In this document: in pieces, positions 15,501-27,138 of the stretch
Position numbering within the stretch: position 1 is the first letter of the stretch
Layout: every line of letters begins with the position of its first letter
Source of the DNA: Perkinsus olseni
Taxonomy: Eukaryota; Perkinsozoa; Perkinsida; Perkinsidae
Length of the DNA: 64,000 nucleotides
Assembly (NCBI GenBank): GCA_013115135.1
Contig: JABANP010000068.1
Location: 62,001 to 126,000, forward strand
Reading direction: 5' to 3'
Position numbers and translations under genes: made by a program
Notes under the pieces: model-generated
The model's database searches: none
What the model was told of the DNA's origin: nothing
Seen by the model: the letters and a program-made list of their open reading frames with translations, nothing else

Positions 15501-18108
15501 GTCTGCTCAGTCCAGCGAGGTAGGTGTAGACAACTAAGTGGTCTCTGGGCGTATTTGCTGTTCTTCAGGAGCCTCTTCCCGAGCCCCTACCCTTCACTGG
15601 TCCTCTTTCCCGTAACGACCTCCTCCGCATGTTCCTTGTCGCTCCGGCGACCGAGGCGTTCCGTGGGGACGCTCGTCCGATCGATTTCGCGGACGAAGCC
15701 CCTCCAGCACCATTGGTCAGCCTATCTGTTGCCAGCACCAGCCAAGTGAGGCAGCCCGGTGGTGGCTCTGCTGGTGGTCTCAGAAGGCAGACCAGTAAGG
15801 GTATGATGGGTCAGCGTCAACAAGGTGGTGGCGGTGGTCATCAGCACATCGGCAGTGGCGACTGGCGTAAGGACATGCTAGGTCCCCAGGCCATGCGGGA
15901 GAAGTACAATCGGCAGCAGAGTCGACAGCAGTACAAGCGGTCGAGCGCTCCTGTGGCTCCACTGAAGGTCACTGAGCATGGCTACAAGGTCGCAGCTAGT
16001 ATGGAGGATATATCTCCTCAAGACAAGCTCCATCGCCAAGTCATGTCCAACCTCAACCGTATCACAGCTGAGAACTTCATGCAAGTGACGGCTAGCTTGG
16101 CTGAGCTAGGGGTGAGTCGGGTCTACCGCCATCTGCTGATGCTCATTCATCCCTTGTGTTCTTTCAGATTGACGAGGGCTGGAAGCTTGAGTTGGTGGTC
16201 CGTACCATCTTCGATAAGGCCATTCAAGAAAGCTACTACTGCGAGATCTACTCTGATATGTGCATGCAGCTGCGACGAGTGTTGCCTGAGTTTGAGGGCG
16301 ATGACAGCAGCAAGCCTATGACCTTCACTAGGGCTCTTATTACTAAGTGCCAAGAGGAGTTCGAGGCCCTACCGGAGGATCTCGCCCCAACGCCCGAGGA
16401 AGAGGCTAAGGCCAATGGTGATGCGCAGGAGCTGGAAGTGATCCGGTCTAAGAAGAAGGAGCGTATCTTGGGCAACATGAAGTTCATTGGTCAACTTTTC
16501 CTACGACAGCTACTCAGTGGCAAGGTCATCAAGGAGGTCGTTGGTCAACTCATCTTCCGTTCGGACGAGCCCGAAGAGCACTACATCGAGTGCGTCTGCA
16601 TTCTACTGCAGAACATCGGTTCTACTCTTGACCAGACTGAGCGTGGTCGCCATCTGTGCACGACTTTCCTCAGCCGTCTTAGAGACATCAAGAAGATGGA
16701 CTATCCTAGTCGGCTCAAGTTCATGATACAGGACCTTATCGACAACAGAAGTCGCGGCTGGGTAGACCGTCAAGGGAACCCTGTTGGTGGTCGTAGCAAG
16801 AAGGCGGTGAAATCTGTCACTCTACAGGGTCAGGAGGATTCCAAGCGCCAGGCCAAGGTGGATGAGGCTCGACGGAAGATGGACGAGCTTGCGAGCGAGA
16901 AGAGAGAGCAGAAGGAAGCTAAGGAGAGAGAGCTGCAGGAGGCCCGGGCCTTCAAGGTCGACAAGTTCAAGAACTCTCGAGACTACTTCCACGAAGATGG
17001 TGATCTCAATTCCTTCCTCAAGGACATAACCGCCATGGTCCAGAACGATCCGAGCTGTCCGCCCAAGATGGCTGAGAATCTGGTCACCTGGGGCTCTGAG
17101 GATCCCCGCAAGGCGCCGAAGGACGCCGAGCTCATCGTCGAGCTTGTACGGCGGGGAATCATCCCCTTCAAGGTCTTAAACTTGGTCTTGCGAGGTTTCC
17201 TGGAGGTGCTTGATGACGTCGCGATGGACTTTCCCAAGGCTCCTGAGTTCTACCATCGGTTGTTCGCCCTTCTTCTCATCGGCGATTACTCTGTGGAAGA
17301 TGGCCCGAGCGAGTTCGACCCTCAGCTGATACTCTCATGGAAGGTCCTTGGCTCCGACGAAAAGTCCTTCGACTTGGCAGTCAAGGTGTTGGAGCAAGCC
17401 AAGCATCTTGCAGGAGTTTCCGGTGTCCAACAAGGTTTGCACTTCCTCCGTCCCCTCATGAAGCGGATGAAGCACTTAGACCCATCCGACGACCAGGACT
17501 TGGATCGGATGCTGGACGAGGCCGGCCTTCTCAAGGACGAGACTGACAGCTTGATTACCAAGCTCAGCGCCGATTTAAAGACCAAAGATTTTGACGCGGC
17601 CACGCGGTTGATCAGCGAGGAAGCCTCGGGCGATTTGCTCGGTGGCAAGAACGCGTTATTCGAGCGGAGAGTGATCTCAGCATTGATATCTAGCTTGCGG
17701 TTGGCGTGGTCGAGGGATTCATGGACAGCGCGGCTTAGCCCTGCAGAGAGCCTTTTACGTACGGTTTGTGGTACTGGTACTGAGACGGGCGTTGGTAGCC
17801 CTAACAATCGTGAGCTTCACAACCAGAAGCGGCTCATCGAGTCCTTGGCCAATGCCATTTACGATGCTCGGCTGCCGTCTAAGGACGTCGCCGGGGTCTA
17901 TCAGGCATTTATCAACATGGGCCTCATACGGCAAGTGGTTCTTCAGAACTGGTACTCGCAGCCCTCTACGGAGCCCGATCACGAGGTTCGGAAGTTCATA
18001 GCGGACGGTGTGAAGCGTGTTTTGGCTGCCCGAAGTAGCGATGGTGAGACGCCGCCCGACAGCTCTGCGGAGTCGGTTGCCTCTCCGTCCCCTTCTACTA
18101 CTCAGTAG
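12539..18108 (+). CDS. eIF4G-type translation initiation scaffold
   Basis: Five-plus exon gene. ATG at 12539-12541 opens a long Gln/Pro/Gly/Asn-rich N-terminus. Introns: 12857-13044 (188 nt, much longer than the rest), a likely frame-changing junction near 13830-13900 (intron or indel), 15184-15235, 15520-15568 and 16112-16167. The acidic DSWEETSSSEGE stretch precedes the domain core. The MIF4G domain runs from KLHRQVMSNLNRITAENFMQ through WKLELVVRTIFDKAIQESYY, MKFIGQLFLRQLLSGKVI and CVCILLQNIGSTLD to MDYPSRLKFMIQDLIDNRS. A charged linker and an MA3-like helical region (DYFHEDGDLNSFLKDITAMV onward) fill the C-terminus. In the family MIF4G binds eIF4A and RNA. The extra C in the CCCCC run at 15298-15302 breaks the frame; four C restore it. 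I see no clear YxxxxL-hydrophobic eIF4E-binding motif, so it may be a divergent paralog. Confidence 0.82.
12857..13044 (+). other. Intron 1 of eIF4G-like gene (188 nt)
   Basis: Bounded by gtagtagcac and a pyrimidine-rich ctgtttcag; joining the flanks in phase 0 gives QQFVPQ followed by GYGFVMPPYM. Most other introns in the window are 29-60 nt. Confidence 0.75.
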
Positions 18109-20572: not shown

Positions 20573-23500
20573 ATGGTACCATCACCACCACCACCACCGC
20601 CCACAGTGCCTAGTGAACGGCCTTCATCGGATGGTAGTAGACGGGAGAGACTGGCCCAGCCCGACTACTTCCCTTACTACTCAGGCACGGTGCTCACTGA
20701 GCTCCCGAAGTCTCTGGACTCAGCAGTCATGCGACAGCCGATGCCGGTTATTGAGCCTGGCAATGAGGGGGTAGTAGTAGCGTCAGTAGCATCTCCCGCC
20801 GCCAGCGGCAGTCCCTTAGATCCTGGTCGGCTCACCAACGACCTTCGACGAACGTATTAAGGACCAGAGCAGCTCCACTGGTCACCCCAATCTCCTCGCG
20901 CAATACTCGGAGCTAGTTCTATTCTACCGATATTGGCGCACCGTCCGAGGCGACGGCAACTGCTACTATCGGGCCCTGGCCTATGGCTTTGTGGAACACT
21001 CGGCTCTCTTCTGTCCGGCCGCGCTTACAACTCTTGTGAATAAGCTCGCGGCCATGTCTGATAAAGGGCGGAGTCATCCAATGTTTGCTGGTAGTAAAGG
21101 GAGGTCTTCGCGGCTCGCTGCTGCGTAGTGCCTCGCTGCAGGTTCGTACAGAGTTTTGTCGATCCTCCTTCCGTCATGGCGAGCCAGGCTAGAGGCCGCC
21201 GCTGGGGACGAGGAGGGCGAGAAGAGAGTTCTCACCGAAGTATTATCACGGAAGGCATCGGGCTGCCTGTCACCGCTCATGCAGATTCATCGTGCTTTCA
21301 ATACCCCGGCCATAGACCAGGCCTTCATAGCTGCCATTCGTCTGCTGGTAGGGGACTACCTCTACAGGCACAAGTCGGAGCCCTGTACCGCGGGCGCCGA
21401 TGCTGATTGCTCTTTCACTTGGGACCAGTGGGCCTATGGGATGATGGATGCTGGTACGCGGAGGTGGTGATGGGCGCTCCCGTTTGTACTCGGTGATGAT
21501 GAGTGACGACGGCTGGCTGCTCAGGGATCGATGGTCCTGGAGGATTCGTCGACTCAGCTGTTCTGAAGATGGAAGAGGACGCCTCCGACCTCGTACAGGC
21601 CGCGGCCCCTCGAGCACTGGGGTGCTGCGTCCGGATCATCATGGTCCACAGGTGAGGGAATCTTTCACAATGCAGCCGTGATCCTCCTCTTATGTCTCCC
21701 CTCTTCTTCAGAGATCGTACTGCTCTGCACAACATCGACTACGGCGACAACTCATCGGTGAGTCGGTTGTCCTTTCGCGAAGTTCTCTACTGCCCCTCAG
21801 GAGCCCCAAGTACACCTTCTATTCCAGCCGGGCCACTATGAGCTACTCATACCAAAGCAACCTGAAAGATACGCTATCCTGCCCATAATAGACGACGCGG
21901 CCCTCGTCCCCGCTGGAGTCCCCGTGCAAGGCCCCCCACAGGGCAGCTCGAGCAACGAGTTCGAAGGCTTCATGCAGCAAGTAGGGCCTCAGCCTCCTCT
22001 TTGGCGTGACATGCCTGTCTCCCGTAGGTGCTCACTAAGTACCACTCCCTCTGGGGGCAGTCCCGGTACCTGAGCAGTACTCTGGACCAACTCCTGTCTC
22101 GCCTAGACCTTCACGCTCGACCAAGCTCCAACGCTGAACCGGTGGACGCGCGCAGTGAGCTCACCGAGATGCGCAACGTTTTGAATGTAAGTCGGGTCTG
22201 ATCGACGCTGATGAGACCCTCCGCGTTGTAGAACCTAGTAGAAGCCCAACGGCAGCTGAGCGCCATGCCGGAGGACCCGATGGACGAGGAGACGCCAGTA
22301 CCTCCCCCACCACCGTCGGCCAATGAGGAGAGCTCGGACGGCAATTCCCTCATGCCAAGGTACTTTGGGCGTCGCTGTTGGAAATTGGTGGAGTGGGAAC
22401 CCCAGGTACCTGGCGGCTCTACGGGAGCTCTCCAAGCCAGCTGCAGCACCCCAAAGGGGACGGGGTTAATTTGAAGATCGAGGACGGCAGTGAAGAGGCC
22501 CTCATGGACTGGCCGGAGCTGCAAAATTCGATCACCCCTGCCACAGCGTCAGCTGGTGCCTTCATCTGCGGGCTGTGTGGGAAGGATGGCCAGCTCGGAG
22601 GCGACGAGGGAGATGGTGTCCGAGCCCCCTGCGGAGACAAGATCCATGAGGAGTGCCTTAGAAAGTTCATAGACGACACTATTGAGAAGAACGGCACTCC
22701 ACTGCAGGACATTCGCTGCTGGCAGCACGAACGGAGGTCACTTCTATCGAAGCCTCCTCTCCTTATCGCGCAAGGCTTCCCCCACAGGTTCGGTCGCGCC
22801 TTCCTCCAAGCAAACATGCGGGCTCCGGAGTCGACTGATGACGCAGAGATGAAGTCGGACGGGACGGACGTCGCCACTGCTGATGAGCCCGAGGGAGAGG
22901 AGCCGACGGAGAAATGCGTCATCTGCAACAAACCGGGGGACCTCGGGGTCCGTTTTCCGTGTGGCTGTCCCTCCCACAAGAAATGTCTCGAGAGCAGCGT
23001 TGAAAACGGTGTGCGGAATGGCCAGGCTCCCGCAGAGATCGAATGCCCCGAGCACACAGGGCGAAGGTACGGCTTGGCTAAATCGGAAGAGCGGTAGGGC
23101 CTCTCAGGTTGGGCGTGAGCTTCCTCGAGTCAACAGTGCCCGCCGCTTTGGAGCCGGTACGCTCTGTTTGGAGTGGTTTTTCATCACGGGTTGCCGCGGT
23201 GGCCGCAGCAGCCAACAGCAACAGCAATGCAGGTCTGTCTCCGATCCTCAGCACATCTTCAGACGGTGCCGCTGTGTAGGTACGGTGAAGCCGGGTCCCA
23301 AAGCTGTGCGGAGTGGTGATCGGGTCGATGTCGCTGCTAAAAGCGAAGCCCACAAGGTGAGAACTTCGCCCATCGCACATTCGACCCTGCATCCGATCTT
23401 GTCTATCTTTCCAGGCCGAACCAGGCAGAACAGTGACGCCGTCAGCTCCGGTGAATGCGCCATGGTCAGCAAGGGCGGCAAGTTGTGATGCTTGTCGAGA

Positions 23501-24185
23501 CCCTCTTCTCGCGGCGCAGGGCCTCCGTCTGCCATGCCGGCATCGTTTTCATCGTCATTGTTTGGGGCAAGCACTGACGAGACAAATATCCCATGGCCGA
23601 GGCGATGGCTTGCAATGCCCCGTCTGCAGGGAGAGTGTTGCTATCGAGGCCAATGATGCCCTCCTCAAGAGCTGTCTCGATCCTGGTGTGTATTACAAGC
23701 TGCATTCCTCTCGAGCACCGCAGCGTGCTGTTGCCGAACCCGCCTCTTCGAGACCCTCGCGAAGTCCCGATACGGCCAGAGGCTCCGCAGAAGATAAGCA
23801 TACTTTGAGACAGAAGTTCCAGCATGGCTGGCGCCCCTGCCCCAAGGGCTGCCGCTTTCTCGGCAACTTCCCGAGCTCGACCGATGCCGAATTCATCACG
23901 TGCTCGTGTGGTTATCGATACTGCAGGGGTTGCGGTGTTGACGAAAACATCATAGCTGCTCATGACGGTCGATGGCACAAGCCATCCTGCTCGTATTTCA
24001 AGCACTACTCTTCCTTCAAAGCCGCTCCCCGAGCATCATCGAAGTGCCCTCAGTGTACGGAGCTCCACCACCGGTGTCCTTTCCCTATGAACGATGGCTA
24101 CCCTGATAGGCTAATGCGGTCTCTACTGAATGATGCACGCACAGGGACAGAGGCTCGCAGGCCAGCTCCCTGGGCTAGGAATTGA
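20573..24185 (+). CDS. Otubain-type OTU deubiquitinase fused to RING/IBR fingers
   Basis: Many exons that splice in frame from end to end. ATG 20573 starts a proline-rich leader; a 49-nt intron (20771-20819) leads to FDERIKDQSSS and the otubain core: VRGDGNCYYRALAYGF (catalytic Cys codon 20961-20963), an alpha-helical arm, FNTPAIDQAFIAAIRLLVGD, and VHLLFQPGHYELLIPK (His codon 21834-21836). After linker exons (VLTKYHSLWGQSRYLSSTLD) come two RING-like fingers ending C-x2-H (CGLC...CGDKIHEEC...CWQH near 22565-22735; CVIC...CGCPSHKKC...CPEH near 22915-23065), a canonical RING (CDAC...CRHRFHRHC...CPVC, 23481-23640) and an IBR-like finger (CPKGC...CSCGYRYCRGC...WHKPSC, 23830-24000). Otubains cleave ubiquitin chains; RING/IBR modules recruit E2s. 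One extra C in the run 22449-22452 breaks frame. A model with two separate genes is possible but no stop or promoter-like gap separates the halves. Confidence 0.75.
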
Positions 24186-24461: not shown

Positions 24462-25550
24462 TTAAGAGAACTCGTCTGAGCTCTTGTTGAATATAACAAC
24501 GTACTTCTCGGTGAGACCCTCGATCTCCGGTTCAGCCACGACGTCGAAGCCCACCGCCCCGAATCTCCTGAGGATAACACGAAGAGGTCGAGTCAAAAGG
24601 GCCGTTCAGTGAAACACGATGAAGTCGACGGAATAGAACAGGGCCGTCCAAGCTCACCTCAACGAAGACGTCTTTGTCGGCCCGCACGTGCTCCATCACC
24701 CACATTTTGTCTTCCCTATTACTTCTGTTTGGGGTCGCGCCAGAAGTCTACTAGCACTAATCTGCCAGTATCTAGGAAAACAGCTTCAACGACTGGCTCA
24801 TCACCATCATTCTCTTCGAGGTTGGAATTTCCAACTTGGAAAACACAGGACCTTGCAGAACTCGTAAACCGTGACATGAATATCCTCACCCTTCAGTGCT
24901 TTTCTGAGTTGCTGAATTATTGTCTTCGGGTAAGTAAGGTGATGGTAAACATCACAGAGCACTGCCAAGTCGACCGAACCATCGGTCTCAGCTGGCAGAC
25001 ATAAATCTTCTTCGGTACCTGACGGGGTACACAGTTTCAGCGCGCTCGACGAAACTCGTCAGCTCACATCCAATGATTTCCACTTTGTTATTATCAATCC
25101 TGGGGTCGGTTTTGAGGTGCTGTATGAAGCCATCCGAGAGCTCAGGGGCATAGACCTTCTTGCCCGGCCGCAGACTGAGCTCACGTGTCAACAGGCCGGT
25201 GCCAGGCCCCACCTCAATGGTAACCGTCTCATGGGTCAGGCCGAGTATCTAAATGGGGACCTCGCCGGGGCACCCGAGAAGGAACATTCTAGCCAGAGTA
25301 CAGGCACAGCCTCTGTGGGGCACTGCTAGCTCATTCCATTGACTGGAGAGCAGGAACCCAACGAACTCCTACATTACCTCAAAAAGCCCGTCAAGATGGT
25401 GGGCCAACGGTCTTTCGACCTCGAACAGCGGGGTGAAAAAAGTCTATCAGTTCATCCTTGTCTTTGTCTTGGAAATCTTTATTCGCGCCTTCAATGAAAT
25501 GAGATACTCCCACTGAAGTCTGCTACTTCTGGACAAACTGATTGTATCAT
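24462..25550 (-). CDS. SAM-dependent methyltransferase, tandem copy A
   Basis: First of three tandem paralogs. ATG at 25548-25550 gives MIQSVCPEVADFS; then an EGANKDFQDKDKDELI segment, an intron, the SAM-binding motif I VEVGPGTGLLTRELSLRPGK, KVEIIGCELTS, a 37-nt phase-1 intron, EEDLCLPAETDGSVDLAVLC with DVYHHLTYP, then DTGRLVLVDFWRDP, ADKDVFVE, an intron, and VVAEPEIEGLTEKYVVIF ending at 24462-24464. The CDxYHHxxYP and the final EPEIEG...Y..IF block resemble class I methyltransferases of the UbiE/COQ5-like group; substrate unknown. Frame breaks occur at runs 25436-25441, 24728-24730 and 24557-24560, plus one near 25517; each is repaired by one base, with copy B as guide. A decaying copy is the alternative explanation. 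Confidence 0.75.
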
Positions 25551-26130: not shown

Positions 26131-27138
26131 TTACGCCTTCTTGAAGATAACGACGTAATTCTCGATGAGCCCCTCAATCTCCGGTTCCGCTACAACGTCG
26201 AAGCCCTCCGATCGAATCTCCTGAGGAAGGCGACGAAGATTCCGAGACGCTGAGCAACCGCGAAAACCGTACTCCCCGTCGTAGCTCACCTCAACGAAGA
26301 CGTCTTTGTCGGCACGCAAGTGCTCGATAACCCACGTCTTGTCCTCTCTAGTGCTCTTATTGGGGTCACGCCAGAAGTCTACCAGTACTAGTCTGCCAGT
26401 ATCTGACAACCTTCAGAATGTTATACACACTGAAAACTGGGGAATTGGCCCGAATCTGACTTCTCTCCGACGAGGAAGGACCAAGACTCGCAATGTAAGC
26501 CCGGCACTCACTAGCAATCGTAGACTATCGGATTCGTGACACGAATATCCTCACCCTTCAGTGCTTTTCTGAGTTGCTGAATTATTGTCTTCGGGTAAGT
26601 AAGGTGATGGTAAACATCACAGAGCACTGCCAAGTCGACCGAACCATCGGTCTCAGCAGGCAGACATAAATCTTCTTCGGTACCTGACGGGGTACACAGG
26701 TTTCAGCGCGCTCGACGAAACTCGTCAGCTCACATCCAATGATTTCCACTTTGTTCTTATCAATCCTGGGGTCGGCTTTTGAGGTGCTGTATGAAGCCAT
26801 CCGAGAGTTCAGTTGCATAGACCTTCTTGCCCGGCCGCCGACTGAACTCACGTGTCAGAAGGCCAGTGCCAGGCCCTACTTCCACTGTGACCGCCTCAGG
26901 GGTAAGGCCGAATACCTGAACGGAATATTTATGATGGAGTGGAGCGATATGGAGGACTGAGCCGTGCTACCTCGAAGAGCCCATCAAGGTGGTGAGCCAG
27001 CGGCCGCTCGACCTCGAACTTCGGCAGGAAAAACTCGAGCAATTGATCCTTATCCTTGTCTTGGAACTCCTTGTTCGCCCCCTCGGGGTAGTGAGATATC
27101 TTGCTGAAGTCGGCTACCTCGGGACAAGTCGATTGCAT
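26131..27138 (-). CDS. SAM-dependent methyltransferase, tandem copy B
   Basis: Best preserved of the three. ATG at 27136-27138 starts MQSTCPEVADFSKISHYPEG; HHLDGLFE is followed by an intron (gtagcac...gttcag), then VFGLTPEAVTVEVGPGTGLL, KVYATELSDGFIQHLK, DPRIDKNKVEIIGCELTS, an intron at the same position as in copy A, LCLPAETDGSVDLAVLC with CDVYHHLTYP, DTGRLVLVDFWRDPNKSTRE, HLRADKDVFVE, a short intron and FDVVAEPEIEGLIENYVVIF ending KKA (stop 26131-26133). Motif I (VGPGTG) and the acidic end of motif II mark a Rossmann SAM-methyltransferase; substrate unknown. One extra A in the run at 26777-26780 shifts the frame between HLK and DPRIDK. High identity to copy A over introns as well as exons indicates a recent duplication. 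Confidence 0.8.

What the first reader, a model, noticed from the sequence alone, without database searches (positions are those of the whole stretch)
20573..24185. Deubiquitinase and ubiquitin-ligase-type fingers in one protein
An otubain-type OTU core with Cys (DGNC) and His (PGHY) in place continues, through introns that all splice in frame, into two RING-like fingers ending C-x2-H, one canonical RING and one IBR-like finger. In animals the A20 protein pairs an OTU domain with zinc fingers for ubiquitin editing; here an unrelated otubain-class OTU is joined to RING/IBR modules, so this may be an independently evolved ubiquitin-editing enzyme. I know of no described otubain-RING-IBR protein, but I could not search.
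Basis: partly seen in the sequence, partly recalled or inferred. Interest (0 to 1): 0.8.

Follow-up and report, generated by a model that had tools for sequence, protein, structure and literature searches.

The report
Deubiquitinase fused to RING zinc fingers
A gene of a single-celled parasite of molluscs appears to join an enzyme domain that removes ubiquitin tags to zinc fingers of the kind that help attach them, and two sister genes in the same genome carry a similar join, so this lineage may have built its own two-way ubiquitin-editing proteins.

Summary
The window is very likely from Perkinsus olseni: the best database protein is named so and comes from a contig of the same length as the window's, 172,779 bases. 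The gene at 20573-24185 encodes an otubain-class domain (Peptidase_C65, E 6.5e-15) and one good RING (zf-RING_2, E 4.3e-8), with two tandemly duplicated RING-like modules between them and a last C/H-rich finger of IBR-like spacing whose only Pfam match at E <= 10 is a weak RING-type one.

That OTU and fingers form one gene is well supported, not proven. A P. marinus gene model runs from the OTU through a homologous linker into the fingers. New here: two of the other three otubain loci found also carry a RING-like finger straight after the OTU, one in a single uninterrupted 327-aa frame; the fourth seems to stop just after the OTU.

Weak points: the junction at 22360-22470 has no unique splice solution; the third catalytic residue appears to be Glu; both structure predictions failed.

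Best reading: a lineage-specific otubain-RING architecture that may edit ubiquitin. Both activities are inferred; A20-like function is untested, RBR membership not shown.

The parts
20573..24185 (+). Otubain-RING gene; my spliced model C is 977 aa with 13 introns of 41-77 bases; N-terminal exon and the 22360-22436 junction uncertain
   Evidence: exon joining; alternatives; the deposited P. olseni protein P0001 and P. marinus P0002 cover parts of it
20877..21850 (+). Otubain-class OTU domain (Peptidase_C65) over six exons of model C; Cys in RGDGNC at 20961-20963, His in PGHYE at 21834-21836, Glu two residues after the His
   Evidence: PF10275 E 6.5e-15 and 4.1e-16 on P0001; 12 PDB sequences at E <= 0.001, named otubain-like, OTUB1, OTUB2 or ubiquitin thioesterase
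21851..22557 (+). Linker between OTU and fingers, homologous in P. marinus along its length; frame discontinuity relative to P. marinus within 22406-22470
   Evidence: alignment; frames
22558..22832 (+). RING-like module R1 (C-x2-C ... C-x4-H-x2-C ... C-x2-H; Asp at the fourth ligand position), probably split by intron 22737-22787 in phase 2
   Evidence: alignment with R2: score 108, 0 of 500 shuffles as high; weak Pfam PHD/RING matches only; does not match the RING pattern
22915..23150 (+). RING-like module R2 (C, C, C, C, H, C, C, H), intron 23067-23107 at the same place and phase as in R1
   Evidence: RING pattern match 22915-23055; intron phases; weak Pfam PHD/Prok-RING matches only
23484..23690 (+). 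Canonical RING-H2 finger R3, with Arg right after the last ligand (CPVCR)
   Evidence: zf-RING_2 E 4.3e-8, above cut-off; E 6.8e-9 alone; genome search E 4.8e-7
23838..24090 (+). Last C/H-rich finger, C-x3-C ... C-x-C-x4-C-x2-C ... H ... H-x3-C: IBR-like spacing, unassigned family
   Evidence: only Pfam match at E <= 10 is zf-RING_4 at 0.46; no PDB match taken as meaningful; one match in the genome at E <= 1, itself

Best explanation
The gene encodes one protein in which an otubain-class deubiquitinase domain is followed by a linker, three tandem RING modules (two degenerate, one canonical) and a last zinc finger. It belongs to a small Perkinsus otubain-RING set: three of the four otubain loci found in this genome have a RING-like finger after the OTU. 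Most likely mechanism (inferred): the canonical RING (R3) recruits a ubiquitin-loaded E2 and directs ubiquitin onto a substrate, while the OTU domain, held on the same chain, trims or removes ubiquitin from that substrate or from the protein itself, so that one protein sets the balance. R1, R2 and the last finger most likely serve dimer, substrate or ubiquitin contact. Shown: domain identities, tandem duplication of R1 and R2 (R3 probably too), recurrence in sister loci, linker homology in P. marinus. Inferred: a single transcript, both activities, the editing role.
For: OTU family and Cys/His; RING family; a P. marinus gene model spanning the OTU from after its Cys, linker, most of R1, R2, half of R3 and the start of the last finger, 77% identical to my model in the alignment, with homology right through the linker; sister locus C301, one uninterrupted ORF (L021:4441-5421:+) with AGDGQC ... 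GCGHYD then a C3HC4 pattern; sister locus C445, whose GHYD exon joins in phase to CPIC...LFHRSC...CPVCR; R3 and the C445 RING align with 0 of 1000 shuffles as high. The RING pattern occurs a mean of 0.0 times per shuffled 64-kb window over 20 shuffles.
Against: No transcript data. The OTU-finger junction has no unique in-frame splice, and the reading conserved in P. marinus stops at 22467 in this assembly. P0005 is a finger-only P. olseni protein. NCBI's own protein P0001 ends before R3 and also carries an upstream stretch that I take for another gene, so predicted models that merge things are not strong evidence here. Glu at the usual Asp/Asn position of the catalytic triad (recalled) may weaken the OTU. 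The residue that usually contacts the E2 (two after the first Cys, recalled) is Ala in R3. The C301 RING does not align significantly with R1, R2, R3 or the C445 RING (148, 163, 51 and 468 of 1000 shuffles as high), so common descent of all these fusions is not shown. The RINGs of C301 and C445 are below Pfam's curated cut-offs, and one inner junction of the C445 OTU was not solved.
Confidence: 0.5

Rival explanations
1. One gene, but not a two-way enzyme: the fingers (R1 without a standard ligand set) are scaffold, substrate or ubiquitin-binding modules that aim the otubain domain, or the OTU is a weak or dead ubiquitin-binding domain aiming a RING ligase.
For: R1 has Asp at a ligand position, R1 and R2 end in His, and their Pfam matches are weak. 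The OTU has GHYE where the other three loci have GHYD. R3 has Ala at the usual E2-contact position (sequence; rule recalled).
Against: R3 is a full RING-H2 above the Pfam cut-off with Arg after the last ligand. The OTU Cys and His are in place, and Glu is a mild change.
Confidence: 0.35
2. Two neighbouring genes: an otubain gene ending near 22467 and a finger gene starting near 22500-22830, joined only by annotation.
For: A stop at 22467 in the OTU-side frame; a conserved Met just upstream of R1 (EALMDW); P0005 as a finger-only model; a deposited Perkinsus model that seems to merge neighbours (P0001 N-terminus).
Against: No room for untranslated ends: the two frames overlap, and protein-level homology with P. 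marinus runs across the boundary. Two sister loci carry OTU and RING together, one in a single exon.
Confidence: 0.1
3. The P. olseni copy is decaying: the frame discontinuity at 22406-22470 is a real lesion and the fingers are no longer translated with the OTU in this strain.
For: The frame that matches P. marinus breaks there.
Against: Finger frames downstream stay open and nearly identical in another P. olseni entry (P0005, 98% identity over 77% of the query); a shifted acceptor or an assembly error would also explain it.
Confidence: 0.08

Closest known systems
Otubains (OTUB1, OTUB2; Peptidase_C65)
   Same: C65 profile match over the cut-off, RGDGNC and PGHY motifs, PDB sequence matches
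   Different: Glu two residues after the His (Asp in OTUB1, Asn in OTUB2, recalled); long C-terminal linker and fingers; otubains as I recall them end soon after the His loop, as the C1 locus here seems to do
A20 / TNFAIP3 (called the Ub-chain-editing enzyme in PMC3705208; passages seen)
   Same: OTU first, zinc fingers after, on one chain; possible two-way action
   Different: OTU of another subfamily (PMC3705208 sets the otubains apart from the A20-like group); RING modules, where A20 has A20-type fingers (recalled)
RING-type E3 ligases (RING-H2)
   Same: R3 matches the RING-H2 profile over its cut-off and has Arg after the last ligand
   Different: joined to a deubiquitinase domain; Ala at the usual E2-contact position (rule recalled); preceded by two degenerate copies
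RBR ligases (RING1-IBR/BRcat-Rcat; PMC3940038, passages seen)
   Same: RING followed by a finger with IBR-like spacing
   Different: no Pfam IBR match, and no further domain with a catalytic Cys recognised
Perkinsus marinus PMAR006951 (P0002)
   Same: same order of OTU part, linker, R1, R2, part of R3 and the start of the last finger
   Different: deposited model begins after the catalytic Cys and lacks parts of R1 and R3 and most of the last finger

Membership tests
Otubain (Peptidase_C65) | match to the family profile above its cut-off | tested here: met
   PF10275 55.7 bits against a cut-off of 24.3
Otubain (Peptidase_C65) | catalytic Cys (DGNC) and His (PGHY) | tested here: met
   sequence at 20961-20963 and 21834-21836; both aligned with a solved otubain, the His also with P. 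marinus
Otubain (Peptidase_C65) | Asp or Asn as third catalytic residue (recalled) | tested here: not met
   Glu in P. olseni and P. marinus; the three other loci have Asp
Otubain (Peptidase_C65) | deubiquitinase activity | not testable with these tools
   no assay
RING-type E3 ligase (R3) | eight zinc ligands in RING order, profile above cut-off | tested here: met
   zf-RING_2 33.7 bits against 27.3; pattern match
RING-type E3 ligase (R3) | hydrophobic E2-contact residue two after the first Cys, Ile or Leu as a rule (recalled) | tested here: not met
   Ala in R3 (C-D-A-C); R1 and R2 have Leu and Ile there (sequence)
RING-type E3 ligase (R3) | ligase activity with an E2 | not testable with these tools
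   no assay
RBR E3 ligase | IBR (BRcat) domain after the RING | tested here: inconclusive
   IBR-like spacing by eye; no IBR match in Pfam; genome-wide IBR search finds 6 matches at E <= 0.05, none on this contig
RBR E3 ligase | Rcat domain with catalytic Cys after the IBR | tested here: inconclusive
   no such domain recognised before the stop at 24183-24185, but only by Pfam and by eye
A20-like OTU subfamily | A20-type zinc fingers after the OTU (recalled) | tested here: not met
   Pfam at E <= 1 on the 1008-aa model lists C65, eight RING-type models and PHD_NSD, no A20 finger

The most novel reading that the evidence does not exclude
Perkinsus has its own family of ubiquitin-editing proteins, built not on the A20 plan but by joining otubain-class deubiquitinases to RING ligase modules (at least three genes, one with three tandem RINGs and an unassigned finger), so that the same protein both adds and removes ubiquitin at one E2-bound site.
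Probability: 0.4. Interest if true: 0.7.

Novelty: new variant of a known kind. Interest (0 to 1): 0.52.

Why it matters
If the protein does both, otubain-based ubiquitin editing arose apart from A20, in a protist lineage. That would give a second, unrelated design to compare when asking why a ligase and its opposing protease should sit on one chain. [quoted passage not shown] It would also correct the deposited P. olseni protein, which is annotated with a C65 domain only and ends before the canonical RING.

Tried and rejected
Structure prediction: the finger protein P0005 (2 sequences, mean pLDDT 38.0) and P0001 (4 sequences, mean pLDDT 33.0) gave no usable models, so no fold search was run and nothing is argued from them.

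A first exon join was out of frame because of a wrong first intron and was dropped. An alternative linker with two introns (22360-22405 and 22465-22546) also reads in frame; I do not favour it because it removes a stretch (VNLK...TAT) that P. marinus keeps.

RBR membership: considered and not shown. Lipase and cutinase matches of the last finger in the PDB (E 0.02-0.37) were set aside as chance.

One scan of viral contigs with the C301 protein: 1 stretch matched a pattern, none encodes a relative. NCBIfam gave nothing for P0001 and P0005 at E <= 1. Searches scored only the 7,990 and 7,992 candidates sharing most words, so distant relatives may have been missed. The two hits, P0003 and P0004 (source 'lgn', no organism named), have a C65 domain and no RING by Pfam at E <= 0.1; their longest contigs are 1,810 and 1,500 bases, so they speak neither for nor against a fusion. 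A paper search for the Perkinsus genome assemblies listed one unrelated paper.

Full report
1. What the window is. A protein search with my spliced model returned two proteins at E <= 0.001: P0001, a Perkinsus olseni protein of 990 aa (93% identity over 75% of the query; longest contig 172,779 bases), and P0002, P. marinus PMAR006951, 635 aa (70% over 58%). The window's contig C645 also has 172,779 bases, so P0001 is very likely the deposited model of this locus.

2. Gene model. Short GT-AG introns join the open frames from 20573 to 24185. Comparison with P0001 and P0002 indicates that 21240-21284 is an intron; the internal repeat suggests that 22737-22787 is one too, although P0001 keeps it and P0002 leaves out more. 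Model C has 977 aa and 13 introns of 41-77 bases. The last three introns (23067-23107, 23233-23279, 23357-23414) agree with P0005, another P. olseni entry that reads through R2, R3 and the last finger to the same C-terminus. P0001 leaves intron 23357-23414 unspliced and so ends before R3, and it carries an upstream stretch (about 19.6-20.4 kb, hydrophobic by eye, no Pfam match for the 110 aa tested) that I take for a separate gene.

3. The doubtful junction. Between 22360 and 22470 several donor-acceptor pairs keep the frame (list cut), so 'in frame' says little there. The exon that resembles P. marinus (RYLAALREL against KYLSALRKA) runs to a stop at 22467 in this assembly, while PKGDGVNLK..., also conserved, is in another frame. 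A shifted acceptor, an assembly error or a real lesion could each explain this; I cannot tell. In P. marinus the deposited model is continuous through it. No second copy of 22300-23060 was found in the assembly.

4. Domains. Peptidase_C65 (E 6.5e-15) and zf-RING_2 (E 4.3e-8) are the only two of ten Pfam families listed that pass their cut-offs in the 1008-aa model A. PDB sequence search of the OTU part: 12 distinct sequences with E <= 0.001, named otubain-like, OTUB1, OTUB2 or ubiquitin thioesterase. The other OTU family, PF02338, has its 2 matches elsewhere in the genome. R1 and R2 align with a score of 108 (0 of 500 shuffles as high) and share an intron at the same place and phase, if 22737-22787 is one; R2-R3 0 of 500 and R1-R3 0 of 500, the last 1 of 1000 in a repeat. 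So the three are most simply read as tandem copies, R1 and R2 the most recent pair. A RING ligand pattern matches R2 and R3 and nothing else in six frames of the window; R1 fails it; 20 shuffled windows gave a mean of 0.0. That shuffle kept base composition in 500-base blocks only. The last finger has IBR-like spacing (rule recalled) and no assigned family; it had one match in the genome, itself, as had the R1-R2 region.

5. Sister loci. The genome search for C65 gave 5 matches (E <= 0.001) at 4 loci: C645 (the window), C1 (two), C445, C301. I fetched 9.4-9.5 kb around each of the other three. C301: one uninterrupted frame of 327 aa, L021:4441-5421, with AGDGQC, GCGHYD and, 21 residues after GHYD, a finger CSRC...PCGHWLCPTC...CIPC; Pfam C65 E 3.1e-8, zf-C3HC4_3 E 0.0042, below its cut-off. 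C445: the exon with LLFKPGHYDILY joins in phase, by introns of 62 and 65 bases, to CPICR...CGISPDCPELFHRSC...CPVCR and a stop; each of these two junctions has one alternative. C65 E 1.6e-11 and 8.4e-6 for its two ends; RING matches are weak (zf-RING_2 E 0.0002 for the finger alone; 0.0097 in the longer piece) and below the cut-off. Of the five junctions tried inside its OTU part, two had one solution, two had five and eight, and one had none with introns of 35-130 bases. C1: GHYDLLV is followed by a stop, and no RING pattern was seen in any frame of L019; a RING split by introns would be missed, as the one of C445 was. So 3 of 4 loci have a RING-like finger after the OTU. The genome-wide zf-RING_2 list (132 matches at E <= 0.01; 150 of 168 candidates scored) contains R3 but not the C445 or C301 fingers, so that list alone would have missed them.

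6. One fusion or several. R3 and the C445 RING align with 0 of 1000 shuffles as high; R2-C445 2 of 1000, R1-C445 6 of 1000. The C301 RING does not align significantly with any (51 to 468 of 1000). The OTUs of C301 and the window align over 20 residues around the Cys (0 of 1000). Common descent is therefore likely for two and open for the third.

7. How it may work. PMC3705208 (12 of 31 passages shown) calls A20 the Ub-chain-editing enzyme, reports OTUB1 as Lys48-preferring and cites it as a buffer for charged E2, and places otubains and A20-like OTUs in different subfamilies. By analogy a RING beside an otubain domain would let one protein hold E2~ubiquitin and cut chains. This is inference. 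Against it stand the Glu in place of Asp/Asn after the catalytic His in both Perkinsus proteins and Ala at the usual E2-contact site of R3 (both rules recalled).

8. Literature. 'Perkinsus' with 'otubain': 0 papers. 'Perkinsus' with 'deubiquitin': 6, seen as listing only. 'Peptidase_C65' with 'RING': 0. Five further searches on otubain or OTU with RING, fusion, editing or alveolates, of which I saw listings only (15 of 18, 20 of 98, 2 of 2, 4 of 4 and 10 of 43 papers), show no title or abstract start that describes an otubain-RING protein. The apicomplexan survey PMC2408969 was seen in passages only (12 of 20); those mention none. The library lacks most subscription papers, so this is weak evidence of novelty.

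9. Verdict. A real gene with a domain architecture for which I found no description, and which recurs in its genome; single-transcript status probable, dual activity possible. Interest 0.52.

Noticed in passing
L021:4441-5421 (C301) and L020 about 5003-3308, minus strand (C445): Two further otubain-class genes with a RING-like finger right after the OTU domain; used as evidence here, but each deserves its own study, with relatives outside this genome.
   Followed up: partly
window 20573-24185, database entry P0001: The deposited P. olseni protein seems to fuse an upstream membrane-like stretch to the OTU gene and stops before the canonical RING: probably annotation errors at both ends.
   Followed up: partly
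window 24988-25248 and 26760-26966, minus strand: Two similar methyltransferase-type pieces (RrnaAD, E 3.6e-7 and 1.4e-5), part of what looks like a tandem duplication downstream of the gene.
   Followed up: no
window 16105-18108, plus strand: Open frame of 667 aa with a MIF4G domain (E 3.5e-28), perhaps an eIF4G-like factor.
   Followed up: no
window 22558-23150: R1 and R2 seem to carry an intron at the same place and phase, a trace of module duplication after the intron was gained.
   Followed up: partly
L019 about 5412-4518, minus strand (C1): Otubain that seems to end a few residues after GHYD, the plain form of the family in this genome.
   Followed up: partly
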